Positions 3,461 through 14,453 of a stretch of 14,529 nt of DNA are shown here, in pieces. The notes beneath the pieces are model-generated. The model did no database searches, had not been told where the DNA came from, and worked only from the letters and a program-made list of their open reading frames with translations. A program made the position numbers and the translations under genes. Every line of letters starts with the position of its first letter. Position 1 is the first letter of the stretch. The DNA comes from an uncultured Propioniciclava sp. (GTDB lineage Bacteria > Actinomycetota > Actinomycetes > Propionibacteriales > Propionibacteriaceae), in NCBI GenBank assembly GCA_937872005.1, contig CALMPQ010000414.1:1-14529 (forward strand). Direction: 5' to 3'.

Positions 3461-3477
3461 GGCGGGTCTCCCCCAAC

Positions 3478-3559
3478 GGCAAAAGTCCGGTATCCCGGCG
3501 TTCTGGCGCGGTTCGAGGCCTCTCGAGCCCCCAAGATCCCGGGATACCGGACTTTTGCC
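3478..3559. repeat. 82-nt hairpin element with perfect 21-bp arms, likely bidirectional terminator
   Basis: The arms at 3478-3498 and 3539-3559 are exact reverse complements over 21 bp; the left arm starts GGCAAAAGTCCGG. The 40-nt interior folds again: GGTTCGAG and CTCGAGCC pair, with one G:U, around GCCT. The element fills the space between two convergent genes, 17 nt after the thiolase stop and 2 nt from the regulator-PPTase stop, and the outer arms carry T-runs in the 3' direction on either strand. That fits a shared terminator. The length and perfection of the arms also fit a small non-autonomous mobile palindrome. I see no target-site duplication. Confidence 0.8.
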
Positions 3560-3561
3560 AT

Positions 3562-4617
3562 TCAGGGCAGCAAGCACCAGCTGGCCACCCACTGCGGCCC
3601 CAGGTCGAGGACGCCCCAGCGCGCGTCAGCTTGCTGCCGGACCTCGCCGCGCAGGCCCTCGCCGGTGGCCTTGAGGTAGGCCTCGGCGCGGGTCCACTCC
3701 TCGATCGAGGCGAACCCCGGCGGCGCCTCGGCCGAGGCGCGTTCGAGGTCGACGCCGAGGCGTCCGGTGTTCGTTGCGCCGACGAGGGTGAACCCACCCG
3801 CGTGCGCGATCGAGACATCCGGACGCCGACCGTTGGCCAGCCGCAGGCGGGGGCGTCCGTGCTGGTCGGAGCCGCAGGCGGGGCACTGGTGGCGGACGGT
3901 GACGTCCTCACCGACCAGGTCGGCGAACAACGTCTCGGCCCGCGGCTCACCCCAGGCGAAGCGCGGGCCATCCGGCAGCACGCGGATCGCCGCGCGGTCG
4001 TCGCGGTCGAGGGCGAGGAGGCCGCCGGCGGAGTGGACGGCACCCGCGGCGTCCACGGTGAGGTCGGTGCCGGGCGCGATGCCGAGGTCGCTGAGGCGGG
4101 CCAGTTGGTCGGGGTCGGAATCGGCCACGCGGGCGACCGTGTGCGAGCCGGGCCCGGCATCGCCCAACAGCGGCGCAACCAGACGCACCCACTCTCCCGA
4201 CGCGCCGGGGATCGCGTCCCCGTGGGGGTCGCGGCGGGGGTGCCCGAGGTGCGCGTCGAGGTGGGCGAGGAAGAACTCGGACGCCGCGTGCTCGAGGAGT
4301 TCGGCGTCGTCGTGCACCTCCTCCCAGCCGTAGCCGAGCACCTCGGTGAGGAAGGTCTCGATCAGGCGGTGGCGGCGCACCATGGCGCGGGCGAGCTGTT
4401 CGCCGAGCTCGGTGAGCGCGACGGGCTTGTAGGGGGCGTAGGTGATCAACCCCTGCGCGGCAAGGCGTTTCACCGTGTCGGAGACGTTGGCCTGGGTCGT
4501 GCCGAGGCGGGCGGCGATGCCCTTGGTGGTGATCGGGGGGTCGCCCCACTCGACCGCGGACCAGATGATCTTCAGGTAGTCCTGAGCGGTGGTGGTGAGG
4601 TCGTCGACGTGGGTCAT
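3562..4617 (-). CDS. mntR: MntR-type (DtxR family) manganese regulator fused to a 4'-phosphopantetheinyl transferase domain
   Basis: A 351-residue protein with two unrelated halves. Residues 1-140 are a DtxR-family winged-helix and dimerisation region. Likely metal ligands Asp13, His83, Glu106, Glu109 and His110 follow the MntR pattern, with Glu where DtxR has Cys; MntR's further Glu is Lys here. Residues about 168-213 are a FeoA/SH3-like domain. Residues about 213-351 resemble a short Sfp-type phosphopantetheinyl transferase: CPAC at 245-248, SIAHAGG at 269-275, GVDLE at 288-292 (Mg ligands Asp290, Glu292) and WTRAEAYLKATGEGL at 308-322 (Glu312, Lys316). There is no Met after residue 79 and no convincing Shine-Dalgarno at the junction, so a true fusion is likely; an internal GTG at Val213 is the alternative. 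The ATG at 4617 overlaps the mntH stop (TGATG); an in-frame TTG lies at 4620. The mntH neighbour supports manganese sensing. Confidence 0.85.
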   Translation of the reverse strand: MTHVDDLTTTAQDYLKIIWSAVEWGDPPITTKGIAARLGTTQANVSDTVKRLAAQGLITYAPYKPVALTELGEQLARAMVRRHRLIETFLTEVLGYGWEEVHDDAELLEHAASEFFLAHLDAHLGHPRRDPHGDAIPGASGEWVRLVAPLLGDAGPGSHTVARVADSDPDQLARLSDLGIAPGTDLTVDAAGAVHSAGGLLALDRDDRAAIRVLPDGPRFAWGEPRAETLFADLVGEDVTVRHQCPACGSDQHGRPRLRLANGRRPDVSIAHAGGFTLVGATNTGRLGVDLERASAEAPPGFASIEEWTRAEAYLKATGEGLRGEVRQQADARWGVLDLGPQWVASWCLLP

Positions 4618-5870
4618 CAACCCCAGCCCAGCACGGTGAGCACCACGAGGGCAAGGTTCAGGGCGATGACCAGTGCGATGACGACCCAGGCGACCAGGGT
4701 CAGGGCTCGGCGGTTGGTGTGCTCCCCCATGAGGGAGCGGTTGCTGGTGAGCCGCACGAGCGGGATCAGCGCGAACGGGATGCCCAGGCTCAGGAAGACT
4801 TGGCTCATCACCAGCGCGGTGGTGGGGTTGACGCCCAGCGCGAGGATGATGAGCGCCGGGACCAGCGTGATCGCGCGCCGCACCACCATCGGGAGGCGGA
4901 CATTGAGCAGTCCGCTCATGATGGTGGCGCCGGCGTAGCAGCCGACCGACGTGGACGCCAACCCGCTCGCCAGCAGCCCGATCCCGAAGAGGATGCCGAA
5001 GGCTGGGCCGAGGGCGTCCGTGATGGCGGCGTGGGCGCCCTCGATGGAGTCGGTGCCGGCGACCCCTTGGAGGGACGCAGCGGCGAGGAGCAGCATGGCT
5101 ATGTTGACGGCGCCGGCGACGAGCATGGAGAGGCCGACGTCCCAGCGGGTGGCGTGCAGGATGCGCGGCAGCTCATGGGGTTGGTGGCCGTGGCGGTCAC
5201 GCGCGAGGGCCGAGTGCACGTAGATGGCGTGCGGCATGACGGTGGCGCCGAGCATGGACGCCGCGAGCAGGACGGACTCGGTGCCGTCCAAGCGGGGGAT
5301 CATCCCGTTCGCGGTTTCGGGCCAGGAGACGTCGCTGACGAACAGTCCGGCGGTGAAGCCGATGGTGATGACCAAGAGGAGGCCCATGACCGTGAGCTCG
5401 AACGGTCGTTGGCCGCCGCGGGTCTGGACGCTGAGGATGAGCATCGACACCGCGCCGACGATGAGGCCGCCGATGACGAGCGGCACGTCGAAGAGGATCT
5501 TCAGTGCGATCGCGCCGCCGAGCACCTCGGCCAGGTCGGTGGCGAGCGCGACGGCCTCGGCCTGCGCCCAGTAGGCGAGGCGCTGGCGTTTGGGAAGGCG
5601 CTCGCCGAGGAGCCTCGGGAGGGACTCGCCCGTGACGAGGCCCGACTTGGCGCTGAGGTACTGCACGAGCATCGCCATGATGTTGGCCGCGACGAGCACC
5701 CAGACCAGCAGGTAGCCGAAGCTCGCGCCCGCGGTGAGGTTGGCGGCGACGTTGCCCGGGTCGACGTACGCGATCGCCGCGACGAACGCCGGCCCCCACA
5801 ACCACGCGAGCGGTCGGGCGGCCGGGCGCGATCCCGACCGCTCGGCCAGCTTCGGCGCGACGGGTTTCAT
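4617..5870 (-). CDS. mntH: NRAMP-family manganese/iron importer MntH
   Basis: A 417-residue polytopic membrane protein of the usual NRAMP length that would import Mn2+ (or Fe2+) with protons. The TM1 metal-site motif DPGN is at 37-40 and the TM6 motif MPH is at 212-214 (MPHAIYVHSAL), the two unwound helices that bind metal in this family. TDLAEVLGGAIAL at 111-123 matches the conserved TM3. The downstream gene, overlapping by one base, is an MntR-like regulator, so the pair looks like a self-regulated manganese uptake operon. The ATG at 5870 has no Shine-Dalgarno and lies 2 nt from a palindrome, which suggests a leaderless or near-leaderless transcript under direct repression. Mn specificity is inferred from the MntR-type ligands of the partner and not from MntH itself. 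Confidence 0.93.
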   Translation of the reverse strand: MKPVAPKLAERSGSRPAARPLAWLWGPAFVAAIAYVDPGNVAANLTAGASFGYLLVWVLVAANIMAMLVQYLSAKSGLVTGESLPRLLGERLPKRQRLAYWAQAEAVALATDLAEVLGGAIALKILFDVPLVIGGLIVGAVSMLILSVQTRGGQRPFELTVMGLLLVITIGFTAGLFVSDVSWPETANGMIPRLDGTESVLLAASMLGATVMPHAIYVHSALARDRHGHQPHELPRILHATRWDVGLSMLVAGAVNIAMLLLAAASLQGVAGTDSIEGAHAAITDALGPAFGILFGIGLLASGLASTSVGCYAGATIMSGLLNVRLPMVVRRAITLVPALIILALGVNPTTALVMSQVFLSLGIPFALIPLVRLTSNRSLMGEHTNRRALTLVAWVVIALVIALNLALVVLTVLGWG

Positions 5871-5872
5871 GC

Positions 5873-5894
5873 AAAGTTAAGCTACACGAACTTT
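5873..5894 (-). promoter_or_regulatory. Putative MntR operator/promoter of mntH
   Basis: AAAGTT (5873-5878) and AACTTT (5889-5894) form a 22-bp interrupted palindrome ending 2 nt upstream of the mntH start codon. This AT-rich patch stands out in GC-rich surroundings. Its spacing and place suit a DtxR/MntR dimer site over the core promoter; on the minus strand TAGCTT (5884-5879) could be the -10 of a leaderless transcript. The assignment rests on position and symmetry only. Confidence 0.45.
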
Positions 5895-8408: not shown

Positions 8409-9187
8409 GGGGTGCCGAAGCCGTACTCGGTGAGCACCGCACGGCCCTTCGCGCTGGTGACGAGGTCGATGAACGCCTGGGCGGCAGCCTGGTTCTGCGA
8501 GGCGGTGACGGGCGAGATCGGGTAGCGGGTCGCGTGGTTGGCCGCGCCGGCGAGCTCCAGGGTCTCTACGACGTCGCCGGCGGCCTTGGCGTCGGTGGAG
8601 AAGACGATGCCGGCGTCGGCCTCGCCCGAGGCGACCTTGCCGCGCACGTCGGTGACCTTCTGTTCTTCGGAGACGGGCTTGAGCGTCACGCCGGCCTCCT
8701 TTGCGAGGTTGACGGCGACGGCGCCGCAGGGCACGGCCGGGGCGCACATGACCAGCTTCTTGCCGTCGAGCGAGGCGTCAAGGCCGGTGATGCCCCCGGG
8801 GTTGCCCTGGGGCACGATCAGGACGCCGACGTTGGTGGCGAACATCGTCGGGTCGGGCTGCACGAGCTGGGCGTCCAGTGCCTTGGTCATGGTGGCCTGG
8901 TCGGCGGTGGCGAGCACGTCGGCGGGGGCGCCACCCTTGATCTGGTCGACGAGGGTGGGGGAACCGTCGAACGTGTACCGCACCTCGAGGTTGGGGTCGA
9001 GTTCGGCGATCTCGGTGAACGCCGCGGTGAGCGAGGCGGCCGCGAACACCGTGACGGTCTGCTTCTCGGCCCGGGTGGGGCTGGACGCCGCGGGCCCGGC
9101 CGCACAGCCCCCCAGCGCGACCGTGAGGGCCAGCATTCCGCCGAGAGCCCGTGTTCCGCGCGCCCAGAGCCCGTGTTCCTGGGTCAT
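8405..9187 (-). CDS. modA: Molybdate-binding lipoprotein ModA
   Basis: A 260-residue periplasmic-type solute-binding protein. The N terminus is a lipoprotein signal: positively charged start with Arg10 and Arg13, a hydrophobic stretch, and the lipobox LGGC ending at Cys28, so the protein would be lipid-anchored outside the membrane. ModA features follow: VFAAASLTAAF near 47-57 and FDGSPTLVDQIKGGAPADV, which contain the small and hydroxyl residues that bind the oxyanion. ATG 9187 is chosen because it overlaps the regulator stop as ATGA; starting at Met18 would remove all the positive charges. Codons 2-16 are made from a palindromic repeat (9145-9183), so the signal peptide's n-region seems to have been acquired from it. 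Tungstate may also bind. Confidence 0.93.
   Translation of the reverse strand: MTQEHGLWARGTRALGGMLALTVALGGCAAGPAASSPTRAEKQTVTVFAAASLTAAFTEIAELDPNLEVRYTFDGSPTLVDQIKGGAPADVLATADQATMTKALDAQLVQPDPTMFATNVGVLIVPQGNPGGITGLDASLDGKKLVMCAPAVPCGAVAVNLAKEAGVTLKPVSEEQKVTDVRGKVASGEADAGIVFSTDAKAAGDVVETLELAGAANHATRYPISPVTASQNQAAAQAFIDLVTSAKGRAVLTEYGFGTP
9145..9183 (+). repeat. 22-nt-period hairpin repeat, array A (two units, partly degenerate)
   Basis: AGAGCCCGTGTTCC occurs at 9144-9157 region and again 22 nt later (dyads GCCCG-TGTTC-CGCGC at 9147-9161 and GCCCG-TGTTC-CTGGG at 9169-9183). It is the same sequence and the same 22-nt period as array B at 9630-9684 but in opposite orientation; the right-hand stem halves have drifted. 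It lies entirely inside the first codons of modA. Confidence 0.8.
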
Positions 9188-9591
9188 GATCGCCCCCGCG
9201 GGGTCTCGACGTGGACGTTGGTGGCCTTGACCACGGCCGTCGCGACTGATCCCGGCTCGAGCCCCAGCTCGCGCACCGCCTCGGTCGAGATCAGGGACAC
9301 GACGCGGAACGGCCCGCACTGCAGGGTCACCTGCGACATCACCGGGTCGCTGACCACGTCGGTCACGAGGCCGGTGAAGTGGTTGCGGGCGGAGCGGTGT
9401 CCGCTGCCGGGGTCGGCGACGGCGTCCGCGTGCATCTCCTCGGCGAGCTGCGCGAGGTCGATCCCGTCGATGACCTTGCGCCCGGCGCCGTCGACCCCGG
9501 CGGCGAGCCGACCGGCGTCCACCCAGCGCCGCACGGTGTCGTCGCTGACGCCGAGCAACGCGGCCGCTTCCGAAATCCTCAATTGCGTCAC
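9184..9591 (-). CDS. HTH-Mop domain molybdate-responsive regulator
   Basis: A 135-residue two-domain protein. Residues 4-25 (LRISEAAALLGVSDDTVRRW) form a MerR/excisionase-type helix-turn-helix. Residues about 68-130 form a single Mop/TOBE domain (ARNHFTGLVTDVV, then VVKATNVHVE) of the type that binds molybdate. It probably senses molybdate and controls the operon it heads, an actinobacterial counterpart of ModE that is not homologous to ModE in its DNA-binding part. GTG 9591 is chosen: it gives the HTH its full first helix, and a TAGGCT box lies 8-13 nt upstream, which suits a leaderless transcript; TTG 9582 is an alternative. An ATG at 9595 belongs to another frame. The stop overlaps modA as ATGA. 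The gene is bracketed by the inverted repeat arrays A and B. Confidence 0.85.
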   Translation of the reverse strand: MTQLRISEAAALLGVSDDTVRRWVDAGRLAAGVDGAGRKVIDGIDLAQLAEEMHADAVADPGSGHRSARNHFTGLVTDVVSDPVMSQVTLQCGPFRVVSLISTEAVRELGLEPGSVATAVVKATNVHVETPRGRS

Positions 9592-9598
9592 ACATACG

Positions 9599-9604
9599 AG
9601 CCTA
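9599..9604 (-). promoter_or_regulatory. Candidate -10 box of the molybdate operon
   Basis: On the minus strand TAGGCT lies 8-13 nt before the GTG start of the regulator gene, in a 92-nt gap after the exporter genes. No Shine-Dalgarno is visible, so a leaderless mRNA is plausible. No clear -35 is seen, because the region further up is the repeat array. Confidence 0.35.
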
Positions 9605-9629
9605 TCACCGCACTTGCGGCTCTGTGCAG

Positions 9630-9684
9630 GCTGTCGGCGCCCGGAACACGGGCTCTCGGCGCCCGGAACACGGGCTGTCGGCGC
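9630..9684 (-). repeat. 22-nt-period hairpin repeat, array B (two and a half units)
   Basis: Two full units at 9630-9651 and 9652-9673 differ by one base, and a partial third runs to 9684. Each full unit holds a perfect 5-bp hairpin, GCCCG-GAACA-CGGGC, at 9639-9653 and 9661-9675. The partial unit ends at the last base of the exporter stop codon. On the minus strand the units read as the same sequence found in array A. The array could end exporter transcription or protect its 3' end. Confidence 0.85.
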
Positions 9685-11642
9685 TACGAGCGCCAGGTCC
9701 GCCACAACCGGGCGTACTCGCCGTCGGCCTCCATCAGTTCTCCATGCGAGCCCAGTTCGGCGATGCGGCCGTCGATGACCACGGCGATGCGGTCGGCGTC
9801 ATGCGCGGTGTGCAACCGGTGCGCGATCGCGATGACCGCGCGCCCGTCCAACAAGGCGTGCATCGAGCCCTCCAGGTGCCGGGCCGAGGTCGGGTCGATC
9901 AGCGACGTCGCCTCGTCCAGCACCAGCGTGTGCGGGTCGGCCACCACCAGCCGCGCCAGCGCCACCTGTTGCGCCTGGGCGGGCGTGAGTTGCAGGTGTC
10001 CGTGACCGAGTTGCGTGTCGAGCCCGTCGCGCAGCTTCGACACCCACCCCCACGCGTCCACCACGCGCAGGGCCTCCTCGACTTCCCCATCCGAGGCCGT
10101 CGTCTCCCGCGCCAGCACGACGTTGTCGCGCAGCGACCCGACGAACACGTGGTGCTCCTGGGTGACCAGCGCCACCTCGGTCCGCAGCCGGTCCAGCGGC
10201 AGGTCCATCACGTCGACCCCACCGACCTCGACCGACCCCGTCCGCGGACGGTTGACCCCCGCCACCAGTCGGCCGAGGGTCGACTTGCCCGACCCCGACG
10301 GGCCCACCACCGCCAGCCGCTCCCCCGGCGCGAGCTCGAGCGACACGTCGTGCAGCACGTCGTGGCCCTCGCGGTACGCGAACCGCACCTCACGACCCTG
10401 CAGCCCAGCCCCCACAGGCTCGGACGCCCCGGGCGTGCGGTCGTCCTCCACCTCAGCCACGCCGATCAGGCGCGTCGTCGAGACCAGGCCGATCTGCAGG
10501 TGGTCGAGCACCGCGATGACGCGGTCGAGAGGCCCCTGCAACTGCTGCACGTACAACGCGGCGGTGGTGATCTGCCCGATCGTGACCAGGTCGGCGTGGT
10601 ACCCCCACGTGCCCACGAGCACGATGAAGACCAGCGGCAGCTGGAACGACGCGTCCACCATCGAGAACAGCACGTTGCGCAACCCGAGCGTGTACCGCTC
10701 AGCCTGGCCCGACAGCTCGGTGTCCTCATCGAGTTGCCCCAACCGACGACCACCAAGCCCCAGCGCCTCGACCGTGCGGGCGCCCTCGATCGACTCGGTC
10801 AGCGTGGCGCTGATCGTCGAGTAGGTGCGCGACTCGGTGATGTACCCGGCGGGAGCGCGACGCAGGTAGTGGCGTCCGCCCGCGACCATCATCAGCGCCG
10901 TCACCAGCATGGGCAGGGCCAGCAGCCACGAGTTGGCGACCATCGCGACCAGCGTCGCGCCGATCGTCACCGTCGAGATGATGAAGTGCGGCAGCGCCCA
11001 GCGCACGGCGGCCGCCATCTTCGACACATCGGACGTGATGCGCGTCAGCAGGTCGCCTGAGCTCGACGCCTCGACCTGCCCCAGGGGCAGGCGCAGCACG
11101 ATCCGCACGACCTCCTCGCGCGCTGCGGCCAGCGTGTCGTAGCCCAGCACCGCGGACGCCCGCCGCGCCAGCAGCACCAGCACGGCCTGCACGACGATCG
11201 CCACCACGATGACGAAAACCAACGCATCCAGCCCCGAAGCACCGACCGTCCCGGCCGCCACCCCGTCGACGAGGTCACCCAGCAGCAACGGCGCGACCAG
11301 CGCCGCCGCGCTCGCCAGCAGGTTGATCACCACGGCCCACACCAGCACCGTGCGGCGGGTGCGCAGGAGCCCGCCCAGGAACCCCACGGCCGTCTTCGCC
11401 GACGACACCGGGAAGCCGCGCACAGGGTTCCGCGCCTCCGCCATCTGCTCGGCCGCCATCGCTTCACGCACCCGCTGCAACCCTGCGTACGCGCGCATGC
11501 GCGCACCCCAGCCACGCCCCCGTGCGGGGCGCCGCAGCCCCTCGGGCATGCGGGACGCGGTCGCCCCCTCGTGCCACGTCTCGGCCGACGTCGCCAACAG
11601 CGGTTCCTGAGCCTGTCGAAGGGCGTCCATTGCCTCACTCAT
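9684..11642 (-). CDS. Heterodimeric ABC exporter subunit with degenerate signature motif
   Basis: A 652-residue half-transporter: an approximately 80-residue cytoplasmic N-terminal extension, an exporter-type membrane domain of about six helices (about 95-390) and a nucleotide-binding domain. Walker A GPSGSGKST is at 447-455, the Q-loop glutamine is Gln495, Walker B LVLDE is at 573-577 and the switch is His608, all intact. The signature is LTPAQ (552-556) in place of LSGGQ. The partner has the reverse defects, so the pair would have one good ATP site. The substrate is unknown; lipid, drug or peptide export are family options. Start ATG 11642 has GGAGG (11654-11650) 7 nt upstream; the ATG at 11648 is too close to it. 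The gene overlaps the partner by 8 nt. Codons 6-14 (DALRQAQEPL) are contributed by a REP-like palindrome. Confidence 0.9.
   Translation of the reverse strand: MSEAMDALRQAQEPLLATSAETWHEGATASRMPEGLRRPARGRGWGARMRAYAGLQRVREAMAAEQMAEARNPVRGFPVSSAKTAVGFLGGLLRTRRTVLVWAVVINLLASAAALVAPLLLGDLVDGVAAGTVGASGLDALVFVIVVAIVVQAVLVLLARRASAVLGYDTLAAAREEVVRIVLRLPLGQVEASSSGDLLTRITSDVSKMAAAVRWALPHFIISTVTIGATLVAMVANSWLLALPMLVTALMMVAGGRHYLRRAPAGYITESRTYSTISATLTESIEGARTVEALGLGGRRLGQLDEDTELSGQAERYTLGLRNVLFSMVDASFQLPLVFIVLVGTWGYHADLVTIGQITTAALYVQQLQGPLDRVIAVLDHLQIGLVSTTRLIGVAEVEDDRTPGASEPVGAGLQGREVRFAYREGHDVLHDVSLELAPGERLAVVGPSGSGKSTLGRLVAGVNRPRTGSVEVGGVDVMDLPLDRLRTEVALVTQEHHVFVGSLRDNVVLARETTASDGEVEEALRVVDAWGWVSKLRDGLDTQLGHGHLQLTPAQAQQVALARLVVADPHTLVLDEATSLIDPTSARHLEGSMHALLDGRAVIAIAHRLHTAHDADRIAVVIDGRIAELGSHGELMEADGEYARLWRTWRS
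11604..11623 (+). repeat. REP-like palindrome, copy 2 (inside a coding start)
   Basis: Core GAGCCTGTCGA (11609-11619) matches copy 1 (2249-2259) except for one base. The flanks TCCT and AGGG pair with one G:T, using other bases than copy 1, so the stem has been kept while its sequence changed. It lies within codons about 7-14 of the exporter subunit on the minus strand. Confidence 0.55.
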
Positions 11643-13736: not shown

Positions 13737-13766
13737 ACGCTACGCCCGCACGGGGGACCCGGTCAA
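13737..13766 (-). promoter_or_regulatory. Candidate promoter of the ABC exporter operon
   Basis: On the minus strand TTGACC (13766-13761) and TAGCGT (13742-13737) are separated by 18 nt, near the sigma-70 type consensus spacing. The -35 overlaps the vapC stop codon. Transcription would begin near 13730, giving a leader of about 180 nt holding the palindromes and the 22-codon ORF. Confidence 0.4.
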
Positions 13767-14176
13767 TCAGAGGCTGGCAAGGGCACCAGCCGGACCGGCA
13801 CGCCGCGCACCGCGCGCGCCAGCTTGGCATCGCAAGTCAGAAGTTCCCCCGAGACGAGTTCGGCCAGGGCGACGTAGTGGGCGTCGTACACCGCGTGGGC
13901 TGATGCCAAGCCCCACACGCGGGGCGCCAGGGCCAGCGCGCTGACCACCTCGAGCTGCAACTCCCCCAAGCGCCGAACGGCCGCCCCGGCCTCTCGTTCC
14001 GAGATGACGCCCCCACGCCACAGACCGCGGAGTGCGCTGAGCACTTCGCCGACCATCAGGTCGGGGGCGTGGACGGCGTCGGCCACCCGGATGAGCTCCC
14101 ACACCTCGGCACCCTGCTGGGTCCCCAGCAGGAACTCGACGCAGGCGGACGCGTCGAGGATGACCGGCCCCGTCAC
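13763..14176 (-). CDS. vapC: VapC-type PIN-domain ribonuclease toxin
   Basis: A 137-residue PIN-domain protein, the standard length for VapC toxins, which cleave RNA with Mg2+ or Mn2+. The acidic active-site residues are Asp8 (VILDASACVEFLL), Glu44 (MVGEVLSALR), Asp98 (VYDAHYVALAE) and Asp116 (LLTCDAKLA), so it looks catalytically complete. The GTG start at 14176 overlaps the stop of the antitoxin gene as GTGA, the usual coupling that keeps antitoxin ahead of toxin. The RNA target cannot be told from sequence. The stop codon overlaps the -35 of the predicted exporter promoter. Confidence 0.9.
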   Translation of the reverse strand: MTGPVILDASACVEFLLGTQQGAEVWELIRVADAVHAPDLMVGEVLSALRGLWRGGVISEREAGAAVRRLGELQLEVVSALALAPRVWGLASAHAVYDAHYVALAELVSGELLTCDAKLARAVRGVPVRLVPLPASD

Positions 14177-14421
14177 GCGTCAGGACCCTCACGGGCATCC
14201 CGCTCGGCGCGGATCAGTTCCGCGGCCCCCACGGAAACTCGCGACCTCGGGTGGTCCTCGCGGATCTCGGCCCAGACCACATCGAGGGTCGGACGCCGGG
14301 CGCTGCGGGACAGCTCAGCCAAGGCGTACTGCGACAGCGACTGGCCCGCGGCCTTCGCCCGGTCCTTGAGGATGCGGGACACGTCGTCGGGGACGTCACG
14401 GATCTGGAGGGTGGTGGCCAT
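14173..14421 (-). CDS. vapB: VapB/FitA-type ribbon-helix-helix antitoxin
   Basis: An 82-residue protein. Residues 1-40 (TLQIRDVPDDVSRILKDRA, then GQSLSQYALAEL) fit the FitA-like ribbon-helix-helix fold that binds the operon's own promoter as a dimer. The C-terminal part, charged and probably flexible, would wrap and block the VapC active site. ATG 14421 is chosen because the RHH strand begins immediately there; an ATG at 14445 would add eight residues coded by the palindrome. Neither start has a well-spaced Shine-Dalgarno, so leaderless translation is possible. It overlaps vapC by 4 nt. Confidence 0.85.
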   Translation of the reverse strand: MATTLQIRDVPDDVSRILKDRAKAAGQSLSQYALAELSRSARRPTLDVVWAEIREDHPRSRVSVGAAELIRAERDAREGPDA

Positions 14422-14438
14422 ACCCCCATCATCCGACA

Positions 14439-14453
14439 CATGCATTCTGCATG
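14439..14453. promoter_or_regulatory. Putative VapBC operator
   Basis: CATGCA (14439-14444) and TGCATG (14448-14453) form a perfect inverted repeat with a 3-nt spacer, 17 nt before the vapB start. Antitoxins of this fold bind such palindromes to repress their own operon; the assignment is by position. Confidence 0.5.

What the first reader, a model, noticed from the sequence alone, without database searches (positions are those of the whole stretch)
3562..4617. Manganese regulator fused to a phosphopantetheinyl transferase
One uninterrupted frame joins a full MntR-type regulator (metal ligands Asp13, His83, Glu106, Glu109, His110 plus a FeoA-like domain) to a domain with the Sfp signature (GVDLE and WTRAEAYLKATG, Asp290, Glu292, Glu312, Lys316 present). 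Sfp-type enzymes use Mg2+ or Mn2+, and the gene is coupled to mntH. The protein could link manganese status to activation of a carrier protein, for example in siderophore, polyketide or fatty-acid synthesis. I know of no described system of this kind. The lack of any Met after residue 79 and of an internal ribosome site argues against two separate proteins.
Basis: partly seen in the sequence, partly recalled or inferred. Interest (0 to 1): 0.85.

Follow-up and report, generated by a model that had tools for sequence, protein, structure and literature searches.

The report
Manganese repressor fused to carrier activator
In a few related actinobacteria, the protein that switches manganese uptake off is joined to a shrunken enzyme of the kind that switches on peptide-polymer factories, and the enzyme half seems to have come from the gene neighbourhood of one such factory.

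Summary
The fusion is real. One frame (4617..3562, minus) encodes a complete MntR-type repressor joined by three residues to a 135-residue domain with the fold and most active-site residues of Sfp-type phosphopantetheinyl transferases (PPTases). Seven protein clusters (72-98% identity) share the full length, one from a closed 3.43-Mb genome (Propioniciclava sp. MC1595); the MntR halves form one clade, so it is no assembly error.

Stand-alone relatives show where the enzyme half came from: a gene trio of a Pls/PosA-family nonribosomal peptide synthetase (polylysine-synthetase-like), an M1 peptidase and a short PPTase. A PPTase lies beside this synthetase in 18 of 28 family genomes that have it, and in 4 of 4 loci checked outside the family. 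In MC1595 synthetase and peptidase remain, the PPTase slot is empty, and the fusion is the only PPTase found besides AcpS. Best reading: a bifunctional protein, self-repressed with mntH, whose C-terminal half activates that synthetase. Activity and manganese control are unproven. Cautions: the domain is truncated, misses the Pfam cut-off, lacks a conserved lysine, and is degenerate in one of seven clusters. New variant of known parts; interest moderate.

The parts
3562..4617 (-). mntR-PPTase fusion gene, 351 aa, ATG start at 4617, stop 3564..3562
   Evidence: seven full-length homologous clusters
4426..4602 (-). residues 6-64, DtxR/MntR winged-helix DNA-binding domain
   Evidence: PF01325 50.3 bits, cut-off 26
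4207..4413 (-). residues 69-137, metal-binding and dimerisation domain (His83, Glu106, Glu109, His110)
3979..4140 (-). residues 160-213, FeoA/SH3-like domain
   Evidence: PF04023 26.7 bits, cut-off 23
3565..3969 (-). residues 217-351, truncated Sfp-type PPTase-like domain (His272, Asp290, Glu292, Glu312, Lys316)
   Evidence: Pfam ACPS itself below cut-off
4617..5870 (-). mntH, NRAMP-type Mn2+ transporter, upstream gene; its TGA overlaps the fusion's ATG
5873..5894 (.). operator-like imperfect palindrome directly before the mntH start (AAAGTTCGTGTAGCTTAACTTT on the minus strand)
   Evidence: related site before mntH in 4 of 4 genomes compared; only match of the core in G000. By palindrome score alone it is not among the four best of its own upstream region: the case is conservation

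Best explanation
The gene makes one bifunctional protein. Residues 1-215 are a manganese-responsive MntR repressor that binds the palindrome before mntH when manganese is plentiful, shutting off mntH and itself. Residues 217-351 are a minimal Sfp-type PPTase that came from the locus of a Pls/PosA-family NRPS (a membrane-bound synthetase probably making a polycationic homopoly(amino acid)) and still puts the phosphopantetheine arm on that NRPS, now from a distance. Because the enzyme half sits in the mntH operon, its amount should rise when manganese is scarce. Shown: the fusion, one clade of fused MntRs, the fold (by model), retention of the catalytic residues in six of seven clusters, purifying selection, the operator-like site, the gene trio in relatives, and the empty slot in fused genomes. 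Inferred: catalysis, the NRPS as substrate, metal response, and any effect of manganese on NRPS activation.
For: MntR half; operator-like site in 4 of 4 mntH upstream regions, one exact site in G000 and in G001. PPTase half: 31 invariant columns in 11 sequences, with H, D, E, E, K among them; fold match. Origin: NRPS-M1-PPTase trio in P. tarda (G003), G018 and G119; a PPTase beside the NRPS in 18 of 28 NRPS-bearing family genomes; 4 of 4 loci checked outside the family (the four best of 76 other matching genomes). Co-occurrence 14 of 28 against 11 of 170, Fisher p 8e-8, genomes not independent. In G001 and G012 the trio keeps NRPS and M1 but no PPTase; in the window's own genome a HAD-like gene follows M1 where the PPTase would be. 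G001 has only AcpS as another PPTase found and only an AcpP-like protein and this NRPS as carriers found. Fused MntRs form one clade, support 100/98. dN/dS 0.40-0.43, bootstrap 0.26-0.64.
Against: The domain is about 60-150 residues shorter than the solved Sfp-type chains it matches and misses the Pfam cut-off. The Lys before the catalytic Glu (Lys152 in PptAb by my alignment; PMC8433221 passages) is Ala311. P0007 has lost the CPxCG/HGRP stretch, Asp290 and Lys316. His272 is Tyr in P0128 and Arg in the trio member of G119. A PDB sequence profile reached Sfp only at E 0.07. The NRPS was not found in the window's own 72%-complete genome; its M1 gene ends at a contig edge where the NRPS would begin. 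Six of 28 NRPS genomes show no PPTase nearby (three cut by contig ends); G009 has an 87%-identical NRPS and no PPTase of this kind, but three ACPS matches elsewhere. The ACPS search that found one gene in G001 does not ring on the fusion itself, so other divergent PPTases could be missed. No operator-like site was found at the NRPS. The PPTase-domain tree forces at least two changes of the fused label, because P0121 groups with P0005.
Confidence: 0.6

Rival explanations
1. The C-terminal domain is a decaying or catalytically dead PPTase remnant, kept only because it folds against the MntR half.
For: Truncation and subthreshold profile score; Ala311 for the conserved Lys; dN/dS 0.40 against 0.16 for the MntR half; P0007 has lost key residues yet keeps the frame.
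Against: Six of seven fused clusters and the nine stand-alone rows of A3 keep H, D, E, E, K; dN/dS clearly under 1; similarly short stand-alone forms sit in the NRPS trio of G003 and G018; G012 and P0121 keep the domain without MntR.
Confidence: 0.22
2. A direct switch: manganese bound by the MntR half, or DNA binding, changes PPTase activity, so that carrier activation is gated by manganese in one molecule.
For: Three residues between strands 211-215 and 219-223 and high model confidence (pLDDT 92.9, pTM 0.89); the Sfp-type enzyme PptAb was crystallised with two Mn2+ (PMC8433221 passages; PDB titles).
Against: The domain exists as a separate gene in relatives, and probably separated again in P0121; no test of coupling was possible.
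Confidence: 0.12
3. The PPTase half serves another carrier, for example AcpP of fatty-acid synthesis, not the NRPS.
For: An AcpP-like protein is the only PP-binding protein found in the window's own incomplete genome.
Against: G001 has a canonical AcpS; relatives sit beside the NRPS; G006 has PP-binding proteins but no match to this PPTase domain.
Confidence: 0.05

Closest known systems
MntR, manganese-dependent repressor of the DtxR family (PDB 5zr4/5zr6)
   Different: The solved members end after the FeoA/SH3-like domain; here a further 135-residue enzyme-like domain follows. The closest unfused relative, P0008, ends at ...AIRVLPPS.
Sfp-type PPTases (Sfp 4mrt/1qr0, PptT, PptAb)
   Same: Fold, His/Asp/Glu/Glu/Lys set, CPxCG-HGRP stretch partly shared with larger Sfp-type relatives P0129-P0132.
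   Different: About 135 residues against 197-283 in the solved chains (a 595-residue crystallisation fusion left out); lacks the N-terminal part and the segment between GVDLE and the WxxxE helix; Ala for the Lys before the catalytic Glu.
Pls/PosA-family NRPS with a peptidase gene (epsilon-polylysine synthetase pls with pldII)
   Same: The G001 NRPS passes TIGR02353 (669.6 bits, cut-off 423.1); a peptidase gene (M1 by Pfam) follows it; pls-peptidase operons are described in PMC8117764 (passages read).
   Different: A short PPTase gene as third partner was not mentioned in the passages read; in the fused clade it lies elsewhere, in the mntH operon. Whether PldII is of M1 type was not checked; the polymer made here is unknown.

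Membership tests
MntR (DtxR family) | Winged-helix DNA-binding domain plus metal-binding/dimerisation domain | tested here: met
MntR (DtxR family) | Metal ligands as in characterised Mn2+-dependent members | tested here: met
   Asp13, His83, Glu106, Glu109, His110 align with PDB chain 5zr4; Lys16 where, by recall, Bacillus MntR has Glu11
MntR (DtxR family) | Score over an NCBIfam MntR equivalog cut-off | tested here: not met
   Best NF047407 146.4 bits, cut-off 350; so a DtxR-family regulator of MntR type, not one of these named equivalogs
MntR (DtxR family) | Binds an operator at the Mn transporter gene in response to Mn2+ | tested here: inconclusive
   Related site before mntH in 4 of 4 genomes, one exact site in G000 and in G001; the backward control rings at one place in G006; binding not testable here
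Sfp-type PPTase | PPTase fold over most of the domain | tested here: met
Sfp-type PPTase | Pfam ACPS score over cut-off | tested here: not met
   15.1 bits against 25 for the window protein; met by 4 of 5 stand-alone relatives tested
Sfp-type PPTase | Metal and catalytic residues His, Asp, Glu, Glu, Lys | tested here: met
   His272, Asp290, Glu292, Glu312, Lys316; invariant in 11 of 11 rows of A3. Not in all relatives: Asp and Lys lost in P0007, His replaced in P0128 and G119
Sfp-type PPTase | Lys before the catalytic Glu, and full two-half length | tested here: not met
   Ala311; about 135 residues. Filed therefore as a truncated divergent relative, not as a canonical Sfp enzyme
Sfp-type PPTase | Transfers phosphopantetheine to a carrier protein | not testable with these tools
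   Needs an enzyme assay
Pls/PosA NRPS trio | Short PPTase lies beside NRPS and M1 peptidase | tested here: not met
   True for many relatives (18 of 28 NRPS genomes have a PPTase beside the NRPS; M1 also seen in 14, not found in 3, G108 not checked) but not for the fused gene, which is 343 kb away in G001

The most novel reading that the evidence does not exclude
A one-protein manganese switch for nonribosomal polymer synthesis: the mntH repressor carries the sole PPTase for a Pls/PosA-type synthetase, so that manganese shortage both opens manganese uptake and raises (by expression, or by direct gating) the conversion of the apo-synthetase to its active form.
Probability: 0.25. Interest if true: 0.8.

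Novelty: new variant of a known kind. Interest (0 to 1): 0.56.

Why it matters
Post-translational activation of carrier proteins is usually treated as constitutive (my understanding, not searched). Here the likely enzyme for one particular synthetase is physically and transcriptionally tied to a metal sensor, in a closed genome where no other Sfp-type enzyme was found. That makes a simple question directly testable: can a bacterium control a biosynthetic machine by metering its PPTase? The work also exposes a gene trio (Pls/PosA synthetase, M1 peptidase, short PPTase) that points to dedicated PPTases for such synthetases, and a very small Sfp-type domain that tests which parts of that fold are needed.

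Tried and rejected
Assembly or sequencing error: rejected; the fusion is in the closed genome G001 and in six other clusters besides. Two separate products from internal initiation: not supported; GTG213 and TTG230 in the window lack a clear ribosome site by eye, and G001 has no ATG/GTG/TTG from residue 201 to 245; proteomics not possible. AcpS replacement: G001 has a canonical AcpS. The window's own genome gave no ACPS match, but it is 72% complete. Direct repression of the NRPS by an MntR site: the pattern found none there; one site with one mismatch in G001 at 2247736 was not followed. Order of events for G012 (PPTase alone at the thiolase/DUF1697 locus, no full mntH match and only a 39%-identical regulator): not resolved; the PPTase and M1 trees are too weak. 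Foldseek and VIA on the whole fusion listed only the MntR half (50 rows each shown), so the C-terminal part was modelled alone. The profile search of A3 against PDB sequences gave Sfp only at E 0.07, below two phosphofructokinase rows, so sequence alone does not prove the link. Independent DtxR-PPTase fusions elsewhere: none noticed, but not searched for systematically; of the 25 family and 77 class genomes with a domain match only those named here were read. Published precedent: searches for MntR with phosphopantetheinyl transferase (9 papers, 8 listed), Propioniciclava with phosphopantetheinyl (none), DtxR/FeoA/fused/MntR terms and a regulator fused to a phosphopantetheinyl transferase domain (none) showed no such fusion in titles and abstract starts; passages of two of these papers were read; only this open-licence library was searched. 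Polylysine with phosphopantetheinyl transferase gave no named PPTase for Pls in the passage read of PMC4361855.

Full report

3. Not an artefact. Of 949 hits of the whole protein (7997 candidates scored), 120 were listed; seven clusters (P0001-P0007, 325-352 aa, 72-98% identity) cover 100% of the query. P0005 has a contig of 3,430,973 bases, the length of the single contig of G001, and bears the name Propioniciclava sp. MC1595. The MntR parts of the fused proteins form one clade (100/98) with the unfused P0008 as sister (96/92); P0008 ends at AIRVLPPS, where the fusions read A(I/V)RVLPxGPRFAWG. The PPTase-domain tree is weakly resolved and forces at least two changes of the fused label, because the separate P0121 groups with the fused P0005. 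dN/dS (Nei-Gojobori) between G000, G001 and G012 is 0.40-0.43 for the PPTase part (bootstrap 0.26-0.64) and 0.16 for MntR (G000-G001). P0007 lacks the CPxCG/HGRP stretch, Asp290 and Lys316, so the enzyme half can be lost.

4. Where the enzyme half comes from. The G001 copy of the NRPS has AMP-binding, PP-binding and hexapeptide domains and passes TIGR02353, Pls/PosA family (669.6, cut-off 423.1). The Streptomyces and Corynebacterium pls genes form operons with a peptidase gene, PldII in Streptomyces being an epsilon-polylysine-degrading enzyme (PMC8117764, passages). Of 198 family genomes, 28 carry the NRPS (E 1e-100 or better) and 25 match the PPTase domain (E 1e-3); 14 have both against 11 of the 170 without NRPS (Fisher 8e-8, not corrected for kinship). 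Looking at the loci, 18 of the 28 have a PPTase next to the NRPS: 17 by a profile made of 12 of the sequences above (G003, G018 and G119 were in that profile and match by construction) and G108 by coordinates only. Three of these (G008, G010, G107) have a distant NRPS (32-33%) and no M1 match. G001 and G012 have the gene at the thiolase-DUF1697 locus; G145 and G146 have a match on another contig; G007, G009, G111, G141, G144 and G182 show none in the stretch fetched, the stretches of G007, G111 and G144 ending 0.1-1.3 kb after M1. In a sample of 394 class genomes 77 matched, the window's own included; the four best others were looked at and all lie beside an NRPS and M1 (4 of 4).

5. State of the fused genomes. 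In G001 the NRPS and M1 are intact (NRPS 2812556-2816362), followed by a HAD-like gene and groEL (names by reading), with no PPTase; the fusion lies 343 kb away. ACPS finds one gene in G001, AcpS, and PP-binding finds a short AcpP-like protein and the NRPS; the ACPS search does not ring on the fusion itself, so an equally divergent PPTase could be missed, though the domain query found only the fusion. In the window's genome (72% complete) the M1 gene is on a 3331-base contig, runs to within 17 bases of its end, and is followed by the HAD-like gene; the NRPS itself was not found. In G012 the PPTase stands alone between the thiolase and DUF1697-modC genes, the same outer neighbours as in the window, while no full mntH (one match at 22%) and no close MntR (one match at 39%) were found. 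P0121 is a separate protein grouped 100/99 with the fused P0005 and still carries the AIRVLPEG tail of the FeoA domain. So the enzyme half can be kept when the MntR half is not.

6. Regulation. An imperfect palindrome, AAAGTT..(10)..AACTTT, lies directly before mntH in G000 and G001, and related forms lie before it in G006 (perfect) and G011; by palindrome score alone the G000 site is not among the four best of its region, so the case is its conservation. The core AGTTNNNGTANNTTAACT, taken from these four sites, occurs once in G000; in G001 once exactly and once with one mismatch; none in G012; the backward control rings only in G006. It was not found at the NRPS. The likely control is therefore of the mntH-fusion operon.

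7. Mechanism. Both halves probably work: the first as manganese-dependent self-repressor of the operon, the second as PPTase of the remote NRPS. Manganese would then act on NRPS activation through the amount of the protein. Direct gating is possible (three-residue linker, pTM 0.89) but untested. A dead domain is the main rival.

8. Novelty. Each half is known; the fusion was not seen in the listings. It is a new variant of known parts.

Noticed in passing
window 3470-3567: A palindromic element of about 100 bp (29-nt arms, 90% complementary) abuts the fusion's 3' end and overlaps its stop and last codon; 14 matches on 7 contigs of the window's genome, its own place included, and none in G001 or G012.
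   Followed up: partly
L164, L165, L166, L167, L086, L087, L123: A recurring actinobacterial gene trio: Pls/PosA-family NRPS, M1 peptidase, short PPTase. The PPTase partner was not mentioned in the passages read of PMC8117764.
   Followed up: yes
P0007 (ena, longest contig 9527 bases): A fused relative whose PPTase half has lost the CPxCG/HGRP stretch, the Asp of GVDLE and the last Lys, yet stays in frame.
   Followed up: partly
L085 7470-7907 (G012): The PPTase stands alone at the syntenic place while no full mntH or close mntR was found in the genome: ancestral state or secondary loss, unresolved.
   Followed up: partly
window 13763-14445: Two overlapping small genes that read like a VapBC-type (PIN domain and antitoxin) pair; from reading the translations, not searched.
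   Followed up: no
window 9184-9705: A short protein that reads like a DNA-binding domain joined to a molybdate-binding (mop) domain, beside modABC-like genes; from reading the translation, not searched.
   Followed up: no
G001:C1:2247736-2247753 (L192): A second operator-like site with one mismatch in the MC1595 genome, a possible further MntR target.
   Followed up: no
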